A stretch of DNA of 64,000 bases from assembly GCF_900111765.1 (NCBI RefSeq), contig NZ_FOIB01000011.1, forward strand, positions 248,001 through 312,000, written 5' to 3'. Positions 32,250 to 54,860 of the stretch are shown one piece after another. A model generated the notes under the pieces. That model did no database searches and was not told the origin of the DNA. It saw only the letters and a program-made list of their open reading frames with translations. This stretch comes from Myxococcus fulvus (GTDB lineage Bacteria; Myxococcota; Myxococcia; Myxococcales; Myxococcaceae). How positions within the stretch are numbered: the first letter of the stretch is position 1; every line of letters starts with the position of its first letter. The translations under genes were made by a program, and so were the position numbers.

Positions 32250-33446
32250 TCAGTGCCACCGCGCGGTGGGTTCTGGGGGCTGGAGCCACGCCGCGCCGAG
32301 TCGATCGAAGGCGGAGCGCCCCGCGGCGTTGGCGGCCTTCAGGGCCGCGACGGCGTCGCGGATGTTCCCGTGTGTGTGGTTGGCCATCACCTGCAGCCGG
32401 AACCTCGCCTGGCCCTTGGCCACGGCGGGGTACTCCACGAGGTTGGCGAGCCGCCCCGCGTCCTGCACGTGTCGGCTGACCAGTCGGGCCAGGGCCTCCG
32501 AGCCAATCTTCACGCAGACGATGGCGGAGGGTTCGCCGTAGACCTCGAAGCCCGCCTCCTCCAATTGGCGGCGCAGCTCCAGGATGTTGCCCAGGAGCTG
32601 CTCACGCAGCCGCCGGCCTTCGGCGCTCTCGATGATTTCGAAGGCCTTCAGGACGGTGGCGGCCTGCGAGGGAGACAGGGCGTTGGAGAAGATGCAGGGC
32701 GGACTGTAGAAGCGCAGGTACTCCTTCAGCGCGCGGGTGTGGCAGGCCACGAAGCCGCCATTCGAGCAGAAGGTCTTGGAGAAGGAGCCCATCACCAGGT
32801 CGGCGTGGCCCAGCATGCCCTGGTCGCCGATGACGCCCTTTCCGTCCGCGCCGAGGTTGCCGAGGTCATGGGCCACATCCACGACCAGCGTCGCGTCGAG
32901 TTCGTGGCAGAGCGCCCGGAGCGCGACGATGTTCGGGCTGTCGCTGTTCATGGAGAACAGGCTCTCGGTCACCACCATGATGCCGTGATGGGCGTCATGG
33001 GCGCGGATCTCCTCGAGCAGGGCGCGACACTCGGCCAGAGCATTGTGGTGGAAGCGGTGGACGTTGTGGGTGGCGGCCTGGGCGCCCTCCTGGAGACAGG
33101 AGTGCGACAAGCCATCCATGACGACATGGTCCGCGGGGCGCACCAGCCCCTTGATGACGCCGTAGCCGGCGGCCCAGCCCGTCGGGAAGAGGAGGGCCTC
33201 CGGCATGTCGAGGAAGTCGGCGACATGTCGCTCCAGCGCCACCGACTGCGGGGTGTTGCCCAGCAGGACGGAGGAGCCCGTCCATGGTTCCAGACATCGG
33301 CACTCCCCCCGGTGGGTGATTCGAGTCAAGGTGGGGTGGCCCTGGCGTGTGGCGCAAGAGACGGGCGCTTGCTCCTCGGGCACATGCCGAGGACCGCGCC
33401 GCGCCGGTACGGCTGCCAGCACGCCGCTGTGCGCGCCGGGGTGCAC
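32250..33446 (-). CDS. AONS-family PLP aminotransferase, N-terminus abnormal
   Basis: Up to 398 residues from GTG 33446. From about residue 54 it matches alpha-oxoamine synthases (AONS/KBL family, condensing an amino acid with an acyl-CoA): TGSSVLLGNTPQSVALE, DGLSHSCLQEG, PLP-phosphate region VVDVAHDLG, and the Schiff-base Lys224 in VMGSFSKTFCSNGGF. The C-terminal small domain is complete. The first 53 residues do not look like the usual N-terminal arm and read as non-coding translation. No other frame in 33300-33470 restores it. The active site is intact, but the gene may be 5'-truncated or start near 33290. It lies directly after the ADOP permease gene. Confidence 0.65.
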   Translation of the reverse strand: MHPGAHSGVLAAVPARRGPRHVPEEQAPVSCATRQGHPTLTRITHRGECRCLEPWTGSSVLLGNTPQSVALERHVADFLDMPEALLFPTGWAAGYGVIKGLVRPADHVVMDGLSHSCLQEGAQAATHNVHRFHHNALAECRALLEEIRAHDAHHGIMVVTESLFSMNSDSPNIVALRALCHELDATLVVDVAHDLGNLGADGKGVIGDQGMLGHADLVMGSFSKTFCSNGGFVACHTRALKEYLRFYSPPCIFSNALSPSQAATVLKAFEIIESAEGRRLREQLLGNILELRRQLEEAGFEVYGEPSAIVCVKIGSEALARLVSRHVQDAGRLANLVEYPAVAKGQARFRLQVMANHTHGNIRDAVAALKAANAAGRSAFDRLGAAWLQPPEPTARWH

Positions 33447-38964: not shown

Positions 38965-39510
38965 TCAGTCCTCGAGCACCGGCGGTGTCGTCTGGGTGAG
39001 CACCGCCGGGGGCTCGCCGCGGGTCATGGACAACAGGCCCTTGAAGCAGCGCACGGCGAGCAGCCAGTTCTTGGGAGAGCGCATGTCCAGGCCGCCCAGG
39101 AGCTGCTTGAGCATGCTGAGCGTGTCGAAATAGACGCGCTCACAGACCAGGGTCTCCGACGCATCGAAGATGAAGAACCCCGTCATGCGCACGCGGAAGC
39201 GGCTGCCCGTGGGCGGGATGTTCCCCAGGGGGCCCAGGTGGGTCCCCATCAGCCAGAACTCGACGATGACCGCGTCGTCGCTGTGCCGCAGGGAGATGAG
39301 CTCGTGGTGCTGGTCCGGGAACGCGACGCGGGTGCTCCGGTAGTACTCGCGCACCGCCAGGCCGCCGTCGTGCACCGTCATCGTGGAGACCAGCTCGTAG
39401 TGGGGATGGGGGAACGTCGACAGGACGTCGTCCCACTGCTGCCGCACCTCGTCGCGGAAGTGGTCCAGCACCAGCTTCTGACGGGCCTTGCGTCGAATCT
39501 CGGGAGTCAT
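38965..39510 (-). CDS. SnoaL-like NTF2-fold protein
   Basis: 181 residues from ATG 39510. Cone-shaped NTF2/SnoaL pattern: N-terminal helix (RRKARQKLVLDHFRDEVRQQW), AVREYYRSTRVAFPDQHHELISL, DDAVIVEFWLMGTHLGPLGNIPPTG, and FRVRMTGFFIFDA. Ester cyclases and polyketide cyclases share GT..G....PPTG.....F, seen here. Likely a cytosolic enzyme or a small-molecule binding protein. It is convergent with the GT-B-like gene, 12 bases apart; no biosynthetic cluster is visible alongside. Confidence 0.78.
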   Translation of the reverse strand: MTPEIRRKARQKLVLDHFRDEVRQQWDDVLSTFPHPHYELVSTMTVHDGGLAVREYYRSTRVAFPDQHHELISLRHSDDAVIVEFWLMGTHLGPLGNIPPTGSRFRVRMTGFFIFDASETLVCERVYFDTLSMLKQLLGGLDMRSPKNWLLAVRCFKGLLSMTRGEPPAVLTQTTPPVLED

Positions 39511-49660: not shown

Positions 49661-50581
49661 CTACTGGGCGCGCCGCAGGTACGCGCCCGGAGCGCACGTG
49701 CGCAGTCGTCCGAGCTCCGCCTCCGCGCCCTGGCGGGACGGGTGGAAGCGGGCCACCGCCCACTTGTCCCGGGTGAGCCGCCGGAAGTCGTTGGTGTCCA
49801 CGGTGAGCAGCGACGTGCCCTGGCAGGCCTTTTCCAACGGAGTCTCCGCCGCGCGGGCATCGGACACGGAGTCCGCCGTGCGGAGGATGACGGCCCACGC
49901 CTCGGCGGGCTTCTCCACCACCTTCTCGCGCTCCGCGTCCCAGCGCAGCTCGGACAGGGTCCATCCATCGGCCTGTTCTCCGCCGCCGACGTCGAGCGTG
50001 CGCGAGAACAAGAGCCGGCCGTCCAGCAGCTCCACGCTCGAGGAGGTGGGCCCCATCCCCTCGCTGCCCTCCCAGGCTCGCCTCGCGCCCGTCTCGTCCG
50101 CGACGAACAGGGCGTGTTGCCGGTGCACATGCTCGAAGCCGCCCTGGTGGGTGACGAGGAGCGCGGTCGGCCCGCCCGGCAGGTCCACCGCCCGGACACG
50201 GAGGTTCCAGGAGGTCGACTCCTCGCCGCCGCCCCAGTCCCAGCCCCCCTCCGTCGCCTTCGCCACGTCGCACGTGAGCGCGTCATAGGGCGCGGACAGC
50301 GTCGCCGTGCGCTTCGCCTCGCCGCTGCGAACGCGCAGCGCGCGCTGGCCCTTCTCGCACGGCAGGGCCACGGCCTCGAGGCCCGAACCGGCTCCCGTCG
50401 AGCCCAGCACCTGCTCCTTCGCGGGGACGGGCGCGGCGCCCATGAGCAGCACGGCGGTGGCGAGGACCGCGCCCGGACGACGGCGCGGCGGCTTGGGGAC
50501 AGCGAGGACGGACACCGGAGACTCCACGGGAGGCGCTTCCCACGGAGTCTGCACGGACTTTCCCTCGTGCGCACCCCTCAT
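49661..50581 (-). CDS. Secreted or membrane-anchored hypothetical protein
   Basis: 306 residues from ATG 50581 (GTG 50596 in frame is an alternative). A basic N-terminus is followed by a hydrophobic segment at about 38-58 (PGAVLATAVLLMGAAPVPA), which can be an atypical signal peptide or anchor. The mature part is beta-rich with Trp-rich segments (GGWDWGGGEESTSWNLRV) and a few cysteines (ALPCEKGQRA, LTCDVAKA, KACQGTS, LRTCAPG), possibly forming two disulphides. No domain recognised. It is the neighbour of the CDPS-like gene on the same strand, with 45 bases between them. Confidence 0.55.
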   Translation of the reverse strand: MRGAHEGKSVQTPWEAPPVESPVSVLAVPKPPRRRPGAVLATAVLLMGAAPVPAKEQVLGSTGAGSGLEAVALPCEKGQRALRVRSGEAKRTATLSAPYDALTCDVAKATEGGWDWGGGEESTSWNLRVRAVDLPGGPTALLVTHQGGFEHVHRQHALFVADETGARRAWEGSEGMGPTSSSVELLDGRLLFSRTLDVGGGEQADGWTLSELRWDAEREKVVEKPAEAWAVILRTADSVSDARAAETPLEKACQGTSLLTVDTNDFRRLTRDKWAVARFHPSRQGAEAELGRLRTCAPGAYLRRAQ

Positions 50582-50626
50582 GCCCCTGGGCACCACGCAG
50601 GCGGGGCCCGCGGGAGGCTCCCGGAC

Positions 50627-51355
50627 TCAATACACGGAGCCTTCCTGGGTGATGTGCATCACCAGCACATGCCGCAGGGGCTTCCCCATCCACTCATCCA
50701 GCTCCGCGATGAGGCCGGTGATGACGTTCATTCCTCGTGGATTGATGGCCGGATAGATGAGCCCGTGCCAGGGAATGTTCCGGACCTGGAGGGGTGTACC
50801 CCACGCCCCCACGATGGGGACCTCGCGGAAGATGAAGTCGAGGATGGCGCGCAGGCGTCTGGGAGTGGGCGTGACGTCGGGGCAGCGCCAGGCCAGCAAC
50901 CTGGCTGCGGCGCCATCCATCATCTGCCGGACCCGGGGCTGGGTGTCGTACATGGCCTCGATGGACCGCGTCTTGTCGAGCAGCTCCGCGGTTTCGATTT
51001 CGTTCCATCGGAAGATGTGGGTCCGCTGCTTCATCGGCTCGCTGCATCCCGACAGCGCCTGGGCGAACAACGCCTCGAAGTGGTCTCCATAACCCAAGGC
51101 GAGCGCCCGGGCCTTGGGCTCCGGCATGTTCATGGCCATTTCGTTGAACTTCATCACCTCGTCGGCGATGAAGATCCCCAGCTGGCCCGAGGTCTTGCCT
51201 TCGAGCTCGTCAAGCAACTGTCTGGCGAGTCGAGGCGTGATGAACTCCTTCGCCTTCCGGTTGCAGCTGATGGCCACCAGCATGTTCTTCTGGTCCGCGT
51301 CGGCCAGCGAGTTGAAGAACAAGAGCTGGGGAAATGGAGCGCCTGGGGTTCCCAT
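50627..51355 (-). CDS. Cyclodipeptide-synthase-like protein (divergent CDPS)
   Basis: 242 residues from ATG 51355 (GAGGAGACTCC site). CDPSs make cyclic dipeptides from two aminoacyl-tRNAs. Seen: LVAISCNRKAKEF with Ser30 where AlbC has its nucleophile Ser37; IFIADEVMKFNEMA; HIFRWNEIETAELL; and ILDFIFREVPIVGAWGTPL, matching the AlbC YxxxELPLF motif with Phe174 for Tyr178 and Glu178 for Glu182. Trp196-His197 stand where AlbC has Tyr202-His. The spacings from the Ser (144, 148 and 166 residues) are close to those in AlbC (141, 145 and 165). Size also fits. Tyr178 and Tyr202 are replaced, so activity is uncertain. No oxidase, P450 or methyltransferase lies beside it. Family assignment is inference from motifs. 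Confidence 0.6.
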   Translation of the reverse strand: MGTPGAPFPQLLFFNSLADADQKNMLVAISCNRKAKEFITPRLARQLLDELEGKTSGQLGIFIADEVMKFNEMAMNMPEPKARALALGYGDHFEALFAQALSGCSEPMKQRTHIFRWNEIETAELLDKTRSIEAMYDTQPRVRQMMDGAAARLLAWRCPDVTPTPRRLRAILDFIFREVPIVGAWGTPLQVRNIPWHGLIYPAINPRGMNVITGLIAELDEWMGKPLRHVLVMHITQEGSVY

Positions 51356-51482
51356 GGAGTCTCCTCGGGCAGCGGGTGTCTCGGGTTGGATATGTCTATG
51401 GGCTGGATGCGTGGATGATAAGTCTTTGAGCGTGTCAGCCACGCGGCGCCGCGCCCGCATGGGGATGCGGTGCGGGGCTCGC

Positions 51483-54400
51483 TCAGCTCGTGCCCTGACC
51501 CGAAGCGCGCCGGGGCAGCAGCGCGATGAACGTCGTGCCCTGACCGTCCTGGGACGTCACGTCGACGGTGCCCCCATGGGACTCGACGATGTGCTTCACG
51601 ATGAAGAGCCCCAGGCCGATGCTGCGCCCGGTGTTGCTGTCCCCCGTGCGGGCGCGCTGGAGCGGACGGAAGAGTCGCTCGCGGGCCTCGTCGGGGATGG
51701 GCGGCCCCTCGTTGTGGACGCACAGGACGACGCGAGGCGCCTCGCCGCGCACGCGCACCGTCACGCGCGAGCTCGCGGGGCTGTATTGAAGCGCGTTGCT
51801 CACCAGGTTGCCCAGCATCTGGGCGATGCGGTCCGGATCCCATTCTCCGAAGGCATCCCCGTCCGACTCCACGCGCAGCTCCCGCTCCGGGTGGCTCATC
51901 TGCAGCTCTTCAATCACCTGCTGTGACAGCTCATGCAGGTCCACGGGCCGCCGGTGGATGGGCAGACCTCCGCCCAGGCGCACCTGGGTGAAGTCCAGCA
52001 GGTCATGCGTCATCCGCACCGCGCGCTCGGCCGAGGTCTGGATGCGCAGCACCGAGCGCAGGTTGCGCTCGCTGAGCTCCTCCCGCCGGGCCAGCACCGA
52101 CGCGCCCAGCTGAATCGCGCTGAGCGGGTTTCGCAGGTCGTGGCTGACGATGCCGATGAGCTGCTGCTCGAACTCCGCGCGCCGACGCGTCTCGGCCTCC
52201 TGGCGCTTCTGCTCGGACAGCTCGTGCGCGATGATGGCCACCCCCACCGGCAGGAACGTCCGGGCGTGGGTCAGGGTGGAGACGGTGAAGCGCACGGGCA
52301 GCCGCGCACCCGTCTGGAGATGGCGTGCCTGGAGCTCACCCTCCCAGCGTCCTCGGGCTGCCACGGTGGGCAGCAGTGTGTCCTGGACGAAGGGGCGGTC
52401 CTCCTCGGAGAAGTAGTCCAGCAGGCTCGTGTGGCGCGCCTGTTCCAGGCTCATCACGCCGAGCATCCGCTGGCCGGCCTCGTTGAGGTAGGTGATGCGG
52501 CTGACAGTATCCGCGATGCCAATCGCATCCGAGCTCTGCTCCACCACGACGGACAGGGCCTGCCGTGCCTGCTCGACCTGGCGCTTCTCCTCCCGCGCCC
52601 TGGACACGGCGAGGTTTCCCTCCACGCGCGCGAGCAGCTCCCGCGCGGAGAAGGGCTTCACCAGATAGTCATTGGCGCCCGCCTCCAGCCCCTCGACGGT
52701 GGCCTCCTCACCCGCGCGGGCCGACAGCAGGATGACGGGGATGTCCGCCGTGACGGGCGAGTCCCGCAGCGCGCGCAGCAAGCCGAAGCCATCCATCCCC
52801 GGCATCATCACGTCGCTGAGCACCAGGTCCGGCCGTCGGGCCCGCACCTGCTCCAGCGCCTCATGGCCGTTGGCGGCCGTCTCCACCGCGTAGCGTCCAC
52901 CCAGGAGGCGCTGGACGTAGTCGCGCATGTCCACGTTGTCGTCCACCACGAGCACCGTCTCGCTGGCGGGGGACGTCCGGTCCTCACGGCGAGGCAGCGG
53001 CGGCGCCTCGTCGTCGGTGACCTCGATGGCGGGCGGGGCCTCGAGCCACGTCCGCGCCTCGCTGACGAAGGCCCGCAGGTGGGTGGCGTGGCCCGGCTCA
53101 CCCGGCTTCAGGTGCTCGGCGGGCAGGTGCGCATGGCCCAGGGGCAGCCACACGGTGAAGGTGCTCCCCTGTCCCTCCACGCTGCGCACGGTGAGCCTGC
53201 CTCCGTGCAGCTTCACCAGCTCCTGCACCAGCGCGAGCCCGATTCCGCTGCCCTCGTAGCTGCGCCCGCGCGCGCCCTGCACCCGGTGGAAGCGCTCGAA
53301 GATGCGCGGCAGCTCCGCCTCGGGGATGCCGGTGCCCGTGTCCGCCACCGACACCTCCACCCCGTCGTCCTTCGCCGCGCACGCGACGCGAATCTCCCCG
53401 GCCAGGGTGAACTTGAAGGCATTGGAGAGCAGGTTGAGGATGACCTTCTCCCACAGCTCCCGGTCCACCCAGACGGGCTCGGGGAGCGGCTCACACGACA
53501 CGAAGAGCTTCAGGCCGGAGCGCTCCACGGTGGAGCGGAAGGCGCTGGCCAGGTCCGCGGTGAGCGCGCCCAGGTTCGTGGGCGCGAAGGCGGCGCGCGT
53601 CCGACCCGCCTCGATGCGCGAGAAGTCGAGCAGCGTGTTGACCAGCTTCAGGAGCCGCAGCCCGTTGCGGTGCACCGTCTCCTGGCGATGACGCTGGCGG
53701 GGCCCCAGCGGCTCCTCGGCGTCGCGCAGGCCGTCCTCCACCGGGCCCAGCATCAACGTGAGCGGCGTGCGGAACTCGTGCGACACGTTGCTGAAGAAGG
53801 TCGTCTTGGCGCGGTCCAGCTCGGCCAGGGCCTCCGTGCGGCGGCGCTCCTCTTCACGGGCCCGCGCGGTGGCCACCGCCGTCGTCACGCTGCTGGCCAC
53901 CAGCTCCAGGAAGCGGCGATAGGCCTCGTCGAGCGCCCGACGGGGGCTGATGCCCAGCACCAGGAAGCCCAGGGGCAGGGCATGTCCGGGCCGGGGCATG
54001 GGCAGCACCACCACGGACGTGGTCGCCTCGGGCCAGGGGCCTCCGGGCAGCGGACCCAGGGCCTGGGGGAGCTGCTCGAGCCGCAGCGACTCTCCGGTGT
54101 GTGCCACGCGGGCCAGGGGCCAGGTGTCCGGGCGGGGCTCCGGGTCCAGGGGGATTCGGGCGGGGGCCGCGCGGCTGTCCGACGGCAGGCCGCTGAGCGC
54201 CACGAGGCTCGCCGTGCGCTCCGTGTCGTCGGTGAGGTAGAGCAGCGCGAGCGGCACGTCGTTCGTGTTGCCCGCGAGCACGCGCGCCATCTCCCGGCAC
54301 GTGAGCTCCGGCGTCTGCTGTCCCAGGGCCGCGGCGCCCAGCTCGGAGAGCGTGCGCAGCCTGCGCTCGTTGAGCACGCGCTCGGTGGTCTCGGTGAGGG

Positions 54401-54860
54401 CGGCGAAGATGCCACCCACGCCGCCGGACTCGTCGAGGATGGGGCTGTGGCTGTAGGAGAAGTAGCACTCCTCCACGTAGCCGTTGCGGTCCAACGGCAT
54501 CATCAGGTCTTCCACGCGGATGGGCTCTCCGGTGGCCTGGATGCGCTCCCAGCCAGGGGCGAGCACGGTGCTCCACACCTCAGGCCAGGTGCGGGAGGCC
54601 TCCTGTCCCAGCGCGGCGGGGTGCTTCGTCGCGCCGCAGATGGGACGGTAGGCGTCGTTGTACATCTGCACGTAGCGCGGGCCCCACGCCAGGTAGAGCG
54701 GGTAGTTGGACGCCAGGACGATGCCCACCGTGGTGCGCAGGGACTGCGGCCAGCGCTCCACGGGGCCCAGGGGCGTCTTCTCCCAGTCGATGCGTCGGAG
54801 CAACGCGCCGCACTCGCCGCCGCCGCGCAGCACCTCCTCCACGGCTCGCGGGCCCCTCAT
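51483..54860 (-). CDS. Hybrid sensor kinase with two kinase modules and a receiver
   Basis: 1125 residues from ATG 54860. Order: an N-terminal PAS-like domain (about 1-160, DWEKTPLGPVERWPQSLR), GAF (170-340), a first histidine kinase with FSNVSHEFRTPL (His361) and ATPase boxes NLLSNAFKFT, DTGTGIPE and GSGIGLALVQ; a receiver (about 630-750) with DD and phospho-acceptor Asp683 in LVLSDVMMPG; a PAS; and a second kinase with IGIVSHDLRNPLS (His907), NLVSNALQYSP and GLGLFIVKHI. No membrane helix is visible, so it is cytosolic. Its start overlaps the upstream kinase stop by four bases (ATGA), indicating coupled synthesis. No response regulator gene adjoins. Confidence 0.9.
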   Translation of the reverse strand: MRGPRAVEEVLRGGGECGALLRRIDWEKTPLGPVERWPQSLRTTVGIVLASNYPLYLAWGPRYVQMYNDAYRPICGATKHPAALGQEASRTWPEVWSTVLAPGWERIQATGEPIRVEDLMMPLDRNGYVEECYFSYSHSPILDESGGVGGIFAALTETTERVLNERRLRTLSELGAAALGQQTPELTCREMARVLAGNTNDVPLALLYLTDDTERTASLVALSGLPSDSRAAPARIPLDPEPRPDTWPLARVAHTGESLRLEQLPQALGPLPGGPWPEATTSVVVLPMPRPGHALPLGFLVLGISPRRALDEAYRRFLELVASSVTTAVATARAREEERRRTEALAELDRAKTTFFSNVSHEFRTPLTLMLGPVEDGLRDAEEPLGPRQRHRQETVHRNGLRLLKLVNTLLDFSRIEAGRTRAAFAPTNLGALTADLASAFRSTVERSGLKLFVSCEPLPEPVWVDRELWEKVILNLLSNAFKFTLAGEIRVACAAKDDGVEVSVADTGTGIPEAELPRIFERFHRVQGARGRSYEGSGIGLALVQELVKLHGGRLTVRSVEGQGSTFTVWLPLGHAHLPAEHLKPGEPGHATHLRAFVSEARTWLEAPPAIEVTDDEAPPLPRREDRTSPASETVLVVDDNVDMRDYVQRLLGGRYAVETAANGHEALEQVRARRPDLVLSDVMMPGMDGFGLLRALRDSPVTADIPVILLSARAGEEATVEGLEAGANDYLVKPFSARELLARVEGNLAVSRAREEKRQVEQARQALSVVVEQSSDAIGIADTVSRITYLNEAGQRMLGVMSLEQARHTSLLDYFSEEDRPFVQDTLLPTVAARGRWEGELQARHLQTGARLPVRFTVSTLTHARTFLPVGVAIIAHELSEQKRQEAETRRRAEFEQQLIGIVSHDLRNPLSAIQLGASVLARREELSERNLRSVLRIQTSAERAVRMTHDLLDFTQVRLGGGLPIHRRPVDLHELSQQVIEELQMSHPERELRVESDGDAFGEWDPDRIAQMLGNLVSNALQYSPASSRVTVRVRGEAPRVVLCVHNEGPPIPDEARERLFRPLQRARTGDSNTGRSIGLGLFIVKHIVESHGGTVDVTSQDGQGTTFIALLPRRASGQGTS

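What the first reader, a model, noticed from the sequence alone, without database searches (positions are those of the whole stretch)
50627..51355. Divergent cyclodipeptide synthase-like gene outside a known cluster
Seen: nucleophile-like Ser30, an IFIADE segment, RWNEIE, and F-IFR-E-VP, with inter-motif spacings close to AlbC (144, 148 and 166 against 141, 145 and 165). Tyr178 and Tyr202 of AlbC are Phe174 and Trp196 here. Myxobacterial CDPSs are poorly described, and this one has no adjacent tailoring oxidase. It may make a new cyclodipeptide or represent a CDPS offshoot with another tRNA-dependent role.
Basis: partly seen in the sequence, partly recalled or inferred. Interest (0 to 1): 0.8.

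Follow-up and report, generated by a model that had tools for sequence, protein, structure and literature searches.

The report
Lone, divergent cyclodipeptide synthase gene
A bacterium, probably a myxobacterium, carries a single, probably imported gene for a distant relative of the enzymes that join two amino acids, taken from charged transfer RNAs, into a ring; its product is unknown and one usual active-site residue is changed.

Summary
Confirmed, with corrections. The gene is on the minus strand (51355..50627, 242 aa) and is a real homologue of tRNA-dependent cyclodipeptide synthases (CDPSs): NCBIfam TIGR04539 E=6e-7, below its cut-off; PDB FoCDPS E=2e-5; a profile of eight other CDPSs gives 38.9 bits against 8.3 for the best of 10,000 shuffles. 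Ser30, Asp65, Glu178, Tyr201 and Pro202 align with the catalytic set of the XYP subfamily. Only Tyr178 is changed, to Phe174, and XYP enzymes mutated there stay active (PMC7613923). It groups with FoCDPS and a Parcubacteria CDPS, not with AlbC. Credible matches: 1 of 195 genomes of its phylum (one search adds two weak partial ones). It lies in about 900 bp missing from the nearest relative's syntenic site, so it was probably gained alone. No tailoring enzyme was found beside it. Most likely it makes a cyclodipeptide; activity and product are untested, and both structure models are poor.

The parts
50627..51355 (-). CDPS-like gene, 242 aa, ATG at 51355, stop TGA ending at 50627
   Evidence: GC by codon position 0.60/0.42/0.86
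51361..51366 (-). GAGGAG, Shine-Dalgarno-like, 5 bases before the ATG
51266..51268 (-). Ser30, nucleophile (AlbC Ser37, ParcuCDPS Ser26)
51161..51163 (-). Asp65 (ParcuCDPS Asp58, essential there; also in FoCDPS)
   Evidence: PMC7613923
50834..50836 (-). Phe174 (AlbC Tyr178), the one changed catalytic position
50822..50824 (-). Glu178 (AlbC Glu182)
50750..50755 (-). Tyr201-Pro202 (AlbC Tyr202-His203; XYP Tyr-Pro)
50578..51480 (.). about 903-bp stretch missing from the syntenic site of the closest relative (53 bp there); contains the whole gene
51483..54860 (-). upstream hybrid histidine kinase (GAF, two HisKA/HATPase sets, receiver, PAS); its end is found, without the CDPS, in five other genomes of the genus
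49661..50596 (-). downstream gene, 311 aa, no Pfam family; on the other side of the same empty site in G004

Best explanation
The gene encodes a divergent, stand-alone XYP-type cyclodipeptide synthase gained by horizontal transfer. Inferred mechanism, by analogy with the family: the aminoacyl group of a first aminoacyl-tRNA enters pocket P1 and is moved onto Ser30, which Asp65 polarises (as Asp58 is thought to do in ParcuCDPS). Glu178 and the ring of Phe174 (in the place of Tyr178) hold it. A second aminoacyl-tRNA gives a dipeptidyl-enzyme, and Tyr201 relays the proton for cyclisation, releasing a 2,5-diketopiperazine. The P1 positions are non-polar (Leu26, Ala28, Phe62, Ala64, Trp117, Ile181, Val182), so a non-polar first amino acid is a guess. 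Shown here: homology, kept residues, XYP signature, lone gene, empty site. Not shown: fold in detail, activity, product, expression.
For: TIGR04539 E=6.1e-7, 29 bits. FoCDPS E=2e-5 over residues 49-216. A P0002+FoCDPS profile reaches seven ParcuCDPS sequences at 3e-7 to 1e-5 and 5ocd at 0.009. Profile of eight CDPSs without P0002 (FoCDPS among them): hhalign 96%, E=3.9e-9 for this one comparison, residues 23-214; hmmsearch 38.9 bits against 8.3 for the best of 10,000 shuffles. Ser, Glu and Tyr are kept in every row that covers them. FastTree on A5 groups P0002, FoCDPS and ParcuCDPS apart from the NYH rows, support 0.996. Even the poor single-sequence model has CDPSs at ranks 1-38 of the 50 rows shown. 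Y-to-F at the Tyr178 position in ParcuCDPS still gives product at lower yield, and the authors cite three other XYP CDPSs mutated at that Tyr that still made theirs (PMC7613923, passages). Codon-position GC of a coding gene and an empty site in the closest relative.
Against: Below both curated cut-offs (TIGR04539 29 of 45 bits; PF16715 not reported at E<=10). Phe at a position described as conserved throughout the family; in AlbC Y178F substantially impairs activity (PMC5935735, passages). Both models are poor (pLDDT 42 and 49.5). A profile of four NYH CDPSs alone gives only 29% probability, E=6e-4. No orthologue, so no test of selection. Fungal XYP CDPSs, which may be the nearest solved kin, could not be made to work in E. 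coli in two attempts (PMC5816076).
Confidence: 0.75

Rival explanations
1. A CDPS homologue with another reaction: it takes an aminoacyl group from tRNA onto Ser30 and passes it to an acceptor other than a second aminoacyl-tRNA, or releases a linear dipeptide.
For: Phe174 in place of Tyr178, a catalytic loop three residues longer with basic residues (NRKAK), and no tailoring gene found nearby.
Against: Tyr201, the residue the literature ties to cyclisation, is kept, as are Asp65, Glu178 and Pro202. A lone CDPS gene and a Y-to-F change that XYP enzymes tolerate do not call for a new reaction.
Confidence: 0.12
2. An imported, inactive gene on its way to loss.
For: Credible match in one genome only, below curated cut-offs, one catalytic position changed.
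Against: Intact frame with a coding GC pattern (0.86 at third positions) and a Shine-Dalgarno-like stretch; the rest of the catalytic set is kept, which drift would not favour.
Confidence: 0.1
3. Chance resemblance or a spurious frame.
For: High-GC DNA with many overlapping frames; weak identity (24% to FoCDPS).
Against: Shuffle and decoy test, profile hit without the query in the profile, CDPS-only head of the fold list.
Confidence: 0.02

Closest known systems
FoCDPS (PDB 31ee, 31eg; organism not given by the tools, my guess from the name is Fusarium oxysporum)
   Same: Only PDB sequence match of P0002; catalytic Glu and Tyr-Pro, Asp of the I-x-D-E segment, Trp of the RWNEIE segment, Glu-to-Tyr spacing of 23
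   Different: 24% identity over 157 aligned positions; Tyr where P0002 has Phe174; its N-terminal part, where the serine should lie, was not in the alignments I saw
ParcuCDPS (Parcubacteria bacterium RAAC4_OD1_1, PDB 7qb8 and mutants; cyclo(His-Pro) and cyclo(His-Glu) in PMC5816076)
   Same: XYP type; Ser26, Asp58, Glu171 and Tyr191-Pro align with Ser30, Asp65, Glu178 and Tyr201-Pro202
   Different: 17% identity over 150 positions; Tyr167 is Phe174 here; its His-selecting P1 residues Tyr55 and Glu174 are Phe62 and Ile181
AlbC / Snou-CDPS (NYH subfamily)

Membership tests
tRNA-dependent cyclodipeptide synthases (CDPS) | Profile membership: TIGR04539 curated cut-off (45 bits), PF16715 cut-off (27 bits) | tested here: not met
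   29.2 bits, E=6.1e-7 for TIGR04539; PF16715 not reported at E<=10. Homology still clear
tRNA-dependent cyclodipeptide synthases (CDPS) | Catalytic Ser (AlbC 37), Glu (182) and Tyr (202) | tested here: met
   Ser30, Glu178, Tyr201 by alignment
tRNA-dependent cyclodipeptide synthases (CDPS) | Tyr at AlbC 178, called conserved throughout the family in PMC7613923 | tested here: not met
   Phe174; the same change in ParcuCDPS leaves activity at lower yield (PMC7613923)
tRNA-dependent cyclodipeptide synthases (CDPS) | HUP/Rossmann fold with active-site residues in one pocket | tested here: inconclusive
   Models pLDDT 42 and 49.5; CDPSs head both Foldseek lists and the VIA list (Z up to 8.4), but TM is 0.2-0.4 and residues 177-242 are unresolved
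tRNA-dependent cyclodipeptide synthases (CDPS) | Makes a cyclodipeptide from two aminoacyl-tRNAs | not testable with these tools
   needs an assay
XYP subfamily | Pro after the cyclising Tyr (P203) with a non-conserved residue at 40 | tested here: met
   Tyr201-Pro202; Arg33 at the aligned position 40
NYH subfamily | Asn40 and His203 | tested here: not met
   Arg33 (Asn32 only if the gap is moved by one) and Pro202
RCDPS (fungal arginine CDPSs) | Sequence similarity to RCDPS proteins | not tested
   No RCDPS sequence in hand; [quoted passage not shown]

The most novel reading that the evidence does not exclude
A lone CDPS in a phylum where no other was found here, naturally carrying Phe at the Tyr178 position and a longer catalytic loop, that makes an unmodified cyclodipeptide used as a signal read by the PAS-containing hybrid kinase it has come to lie behind. 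In 2 of the 7 other CDPS loci whose neighbours I could read (a Legionella lytica plasmid, L045, and a phage-like contig, L052) the CDPS gene overlaps a PAS-histidine-kinase gene, so a CDPS-plus-kinase signalling module is not excluded. In this window the end of the kinase gene is also found in five other genomes of the genus without the CDPS, which speaks for chance.
Probability: 0.07. Interest if true: 0.75.

Novelty: new variant of a known kind. Interest (0 to 1): 0.38.

Why it matters
It carries in nature the Tyr-to-Phe change studied so far, as far as I saw, by mutagenesis, so it could show whether the phenol hydroxyl is dispensable in a natural XYP enzyme. Its product may be a diketopiperazine without tailoring genes alongside.

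Tried and rejected
Orthologues: a genome-contig scan with P0002 alone (22 pattern matches, none confirmed) and one with a three-sequence alignment whose first row, used for confirmation, is FoCDPS (60 pattern matches, none confirmed). Both use short peptide patterns, so they do not exclude distant kin. Viral contigs with P0002, A1 and A2 and with AlbC and two plasmid CDPSs: none confirmed; with a NYH alignment one CDPS (L052; one search found the same contig again). Plasmids tblastn with P0002, with the FoCDPS stretch and with the ParcuCDPS stretch: no match. Phages with P0002: only E 5-7. Two weak partial hits in the phylum (L002 E=0.004, L003 E=0.008, 27% identity over about 110 residues) were taken as noise and not followed.

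Family censuses: TIGR04539 in 100 relatives (0 of 100) and PF16715 in 195 genomes of the phylum (81 of 195 with a match at E<=1, 0 of 195 over the cut-off). Neither reported the window's own gene, so they show nothing about divergent CDPSs. TIGR04539 does ring on records that hold ordinary CDPSs (2 of 2). The alignment search A5 (which contains P0002) finds only the window's gene in 195 genomes at E<=0.01. In the 2017 census most XYP CDPSs are from 'proteobacteria' (PMC5816076), a name that then took in myxobacteria (recalled), so a known myxobacterial one is not excluded.

AlbC-like membership: rejected. A NYH-only profile was nearly blind. PHROGs gave only E 0.03 and 0.2, PADLOC nothing for the gene. 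Sigma-70 promoter and terminator scan of 50400-51700: none. Repeats at the edges of the insert: no convincing pair. VIA rows outside the CDPS family (UspE, tyrosyl-tRNA synthetases, elongation factors and others) have Z 4.6-6.1, and most CDPS rows also lie under 8, the level the tool calls possibly only a common arrangement. In the second Foldseek list non-CDPS rows come in at 39, 47, 48 and 50. Specificity prediction: the consensus motifs in PMC5816076 are figures that are not held, so only the P1 residues were read off; the P2 positions printed were partly my own list, sent before I saw the paper's, and are not used.

Full report
What is there. The frame runs on the minus strand from ATG 51355 to a stop ending at 50627, with GAGGAG five bases before the ATG. 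An in-frame upstream ATG (51460) would give 277 aa. Its codon-position GC is 0.60/0.42/0.86, the pattern of a coding gene, but lower at each position than five neighbouring frames (0.62-0.74/0.43-0.57/0.91-0.94); total GC is 0.627 against 0.67-0.74.

Is it a CDPS homologue? Pfam reports nothing. NCBIfam reports TIGR04539, tRNA-dependent cyclodipeptide synthase, at E=6.1e-7 but 29 bits against a cut-off of 45. In PDB the only sequence match at E<=10 is FoCDPS, E=2e-5. A profile of P0002 and FoCDPS then reaches seven ParcuCDPS sequences (3e-7 to 1e-5) and 5ocd (0.009); it contains FoCDPS, so only the others are independent. With hmmsearch that eight-row profile gives 38.9 bits, against 8.3 for the best of 10,000 shuffles; of 586 stop-to-stop frames of the window the only one among the 12 best rows is 309 aa long, as is the gene's own frame.

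Fold. A model from the sequence alone has pLDDT 42, pTM 0.35, too weak for geometry, yet the first 38 of 50 rows shown by Foldseek are CDPSs, led by AlbC (E=4.6e-4; TM about 0.3). A second model with one CDPS from a virus-collection contig in the alignment has pLDDT 49.5, pTM 0.52 and again gives CDPSs at ranks 1-38 (by VIA-align the first 12 rows are CDPSs, best Z 8.4 for 9j61, the others under 8). The second is biased by its partner.

Active site. In the ten-row alignment the columns identical in all rows are Ala82, Glu178, Pro180 and Tyr201; Ser30 is shared by the nine rows that reach that far, and Tyr is at position 174 in every row but P0002. So Ser30=Ser37, Phe174=Tyr178, Glu178=Glu182, Tyr201=Tyr202, Pro202=His203 in AlbC numbers. 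P0002, FoCDPS and ParcuCDPS have Tyr-Pro; the six plasmid-borne CDPSs and AlbC have Tyr-His. Asp65 aligns with the Asp of FoCDPS and with ParcuCDPS Asp58, whose loss abolishes activity (PMC7613923, passages).

What the literature says of these residues (passages only). Tyr202 is strictly conserved and serves cyclisation; Y178F in AlbC substantially impairs activity and the first step (PMC5935735). NYH and XYP share the four residues and differ at 40/203; a third subfamily, RCDPS, shows no sequence homology with them (PMC13062777). In ParcuCDPS, Y167F (the Tyr178 position) still makes product at lower yield, and the authors cite like results in three XYP enzymes (PMC7613923). So Phe174 is unusual but compatible with activity. 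All 765 putative CDPSs of a 2017 census fell into NYH or XYP; eukaryotic XYP members are fungal, and two attempts to express one in E. coli were unsuccessful (PMC5816076, passages and sections 13 and 14).

Substrate. The P1 positions of that paper read Leu26, Ala28, Phe62, Ala64, Trp117, Ile181, Val182 here; the eighth (AlbC 200) is Trp196 as aligned, or Leu199 if the gap is moved. ParcuCDPS selects His with Tyr55, Glu174 and Tyr189, and double mutants made hydrophobic there accept Leu or Phe from small substrate analogues. The matching residues here are Phe62, Ile181 and Trp196/Leu199, hence the guess of a non-polar first residue.

Distribution and origin. P0002 is found in 1 of 100 relatives, its own genome, and, at a credible level, in 1 of 195 genomes of the phylum, its own again (one search lists 3 of 195 at E<=0.01, two of them partial hits at E 0.004 and 0.008). 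In G004, the closest relative by this stretch, flanks of 89% and 92% identity are 53 bp apart where the window has 903 bp (window 50578-51480). In G015, G017, G021 and G024 the kinase end is followed by other sequence, in G017 a frame that looks by eye like a helix-turn-helix regulator. The remaining 21 of the 26 other genus genomes gave no strong match to this end of the kinase (best about 70-73% identity there, likely paralogues) and were not examined. One gain is the simplest reading. The donor is unknown: FoCDPS is the nearest solved sequence, at 24%, which does not show a fungal source.

Surroundings. Upstream are two histidine kinases, downstream a 311-aa protein without a family. Twenty-four window proteins beside the CDPS were scanned with Pfam (5, 10, 9), not every frame of the window. 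None is a P450, a cyclodipeptide oxidase-like nitroreductase or a 2-oxoglutarate dioxygenase; one dioxygenase-named match (PF00775) has no stretch that passes on its own and lies in a carboxypeptidase-regulatory-like repeat protein. A SnoaL-like protein (38968-39510) and an aminotransferase (32253-33446) lie more than 11 kb away.

Verdict. It works, most likely, like an XYP cyclodipeptide synthase. As to membership, two features were tested and not met (curated cut-offs, Tyr178), so I call it a variant of the kind rather than a plain member. PMC10634498 (passages) reports no CDPS in the myxobacterial strains it studied. My paper searches for CDPS with myxobacteria or Myxococcus (7 and 8 papers listed) showed no characterised myxobacterial CDPS in the listings or in the passages of the three papers opened from them (PMC10634498, PMC2922099, PMC5930311). 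Only open-licence papers are held.

Noticed in passing
L052 4965-7217 (IMG/VR contig IMGVR_UViG_3300049926_000093): A phage-like contig (RecT and DUF3799 genes upstream) encodes a CDPS (TIGR04539, 207 bits) whose end overlaps the longest frame of a PAS-histidine kinase, followed by a lone receiver-domain gene.
   Followed up: partly
L045 3980-6734 (Legionella lytica plasmid NZ_CP071528.1): The CDPS gene overlaps by 14 bases a PAS hybrid histidine kinase with receiver and Hpt domains. With L052 this hints at a CDPS-plus-kinase module; two paper searches listed one paper each, neither on this by title and abstract.
   Followed up: partly
L048 477-2660 (Streptomyces liliifuscus plasmid NZ_CP066832.1): A CDPS gene lies between a heavy-metal-responsive regulator and a heavy-metal P-type ATPase.
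   Followed up: no
window 50517-50531 and 51350-51364: A 15-base inverted repeat (93%) links the start of the CDPS gene with the start region of the downstream gene; the downstream copy has a similar counterpart in G004.
   Followed up: no
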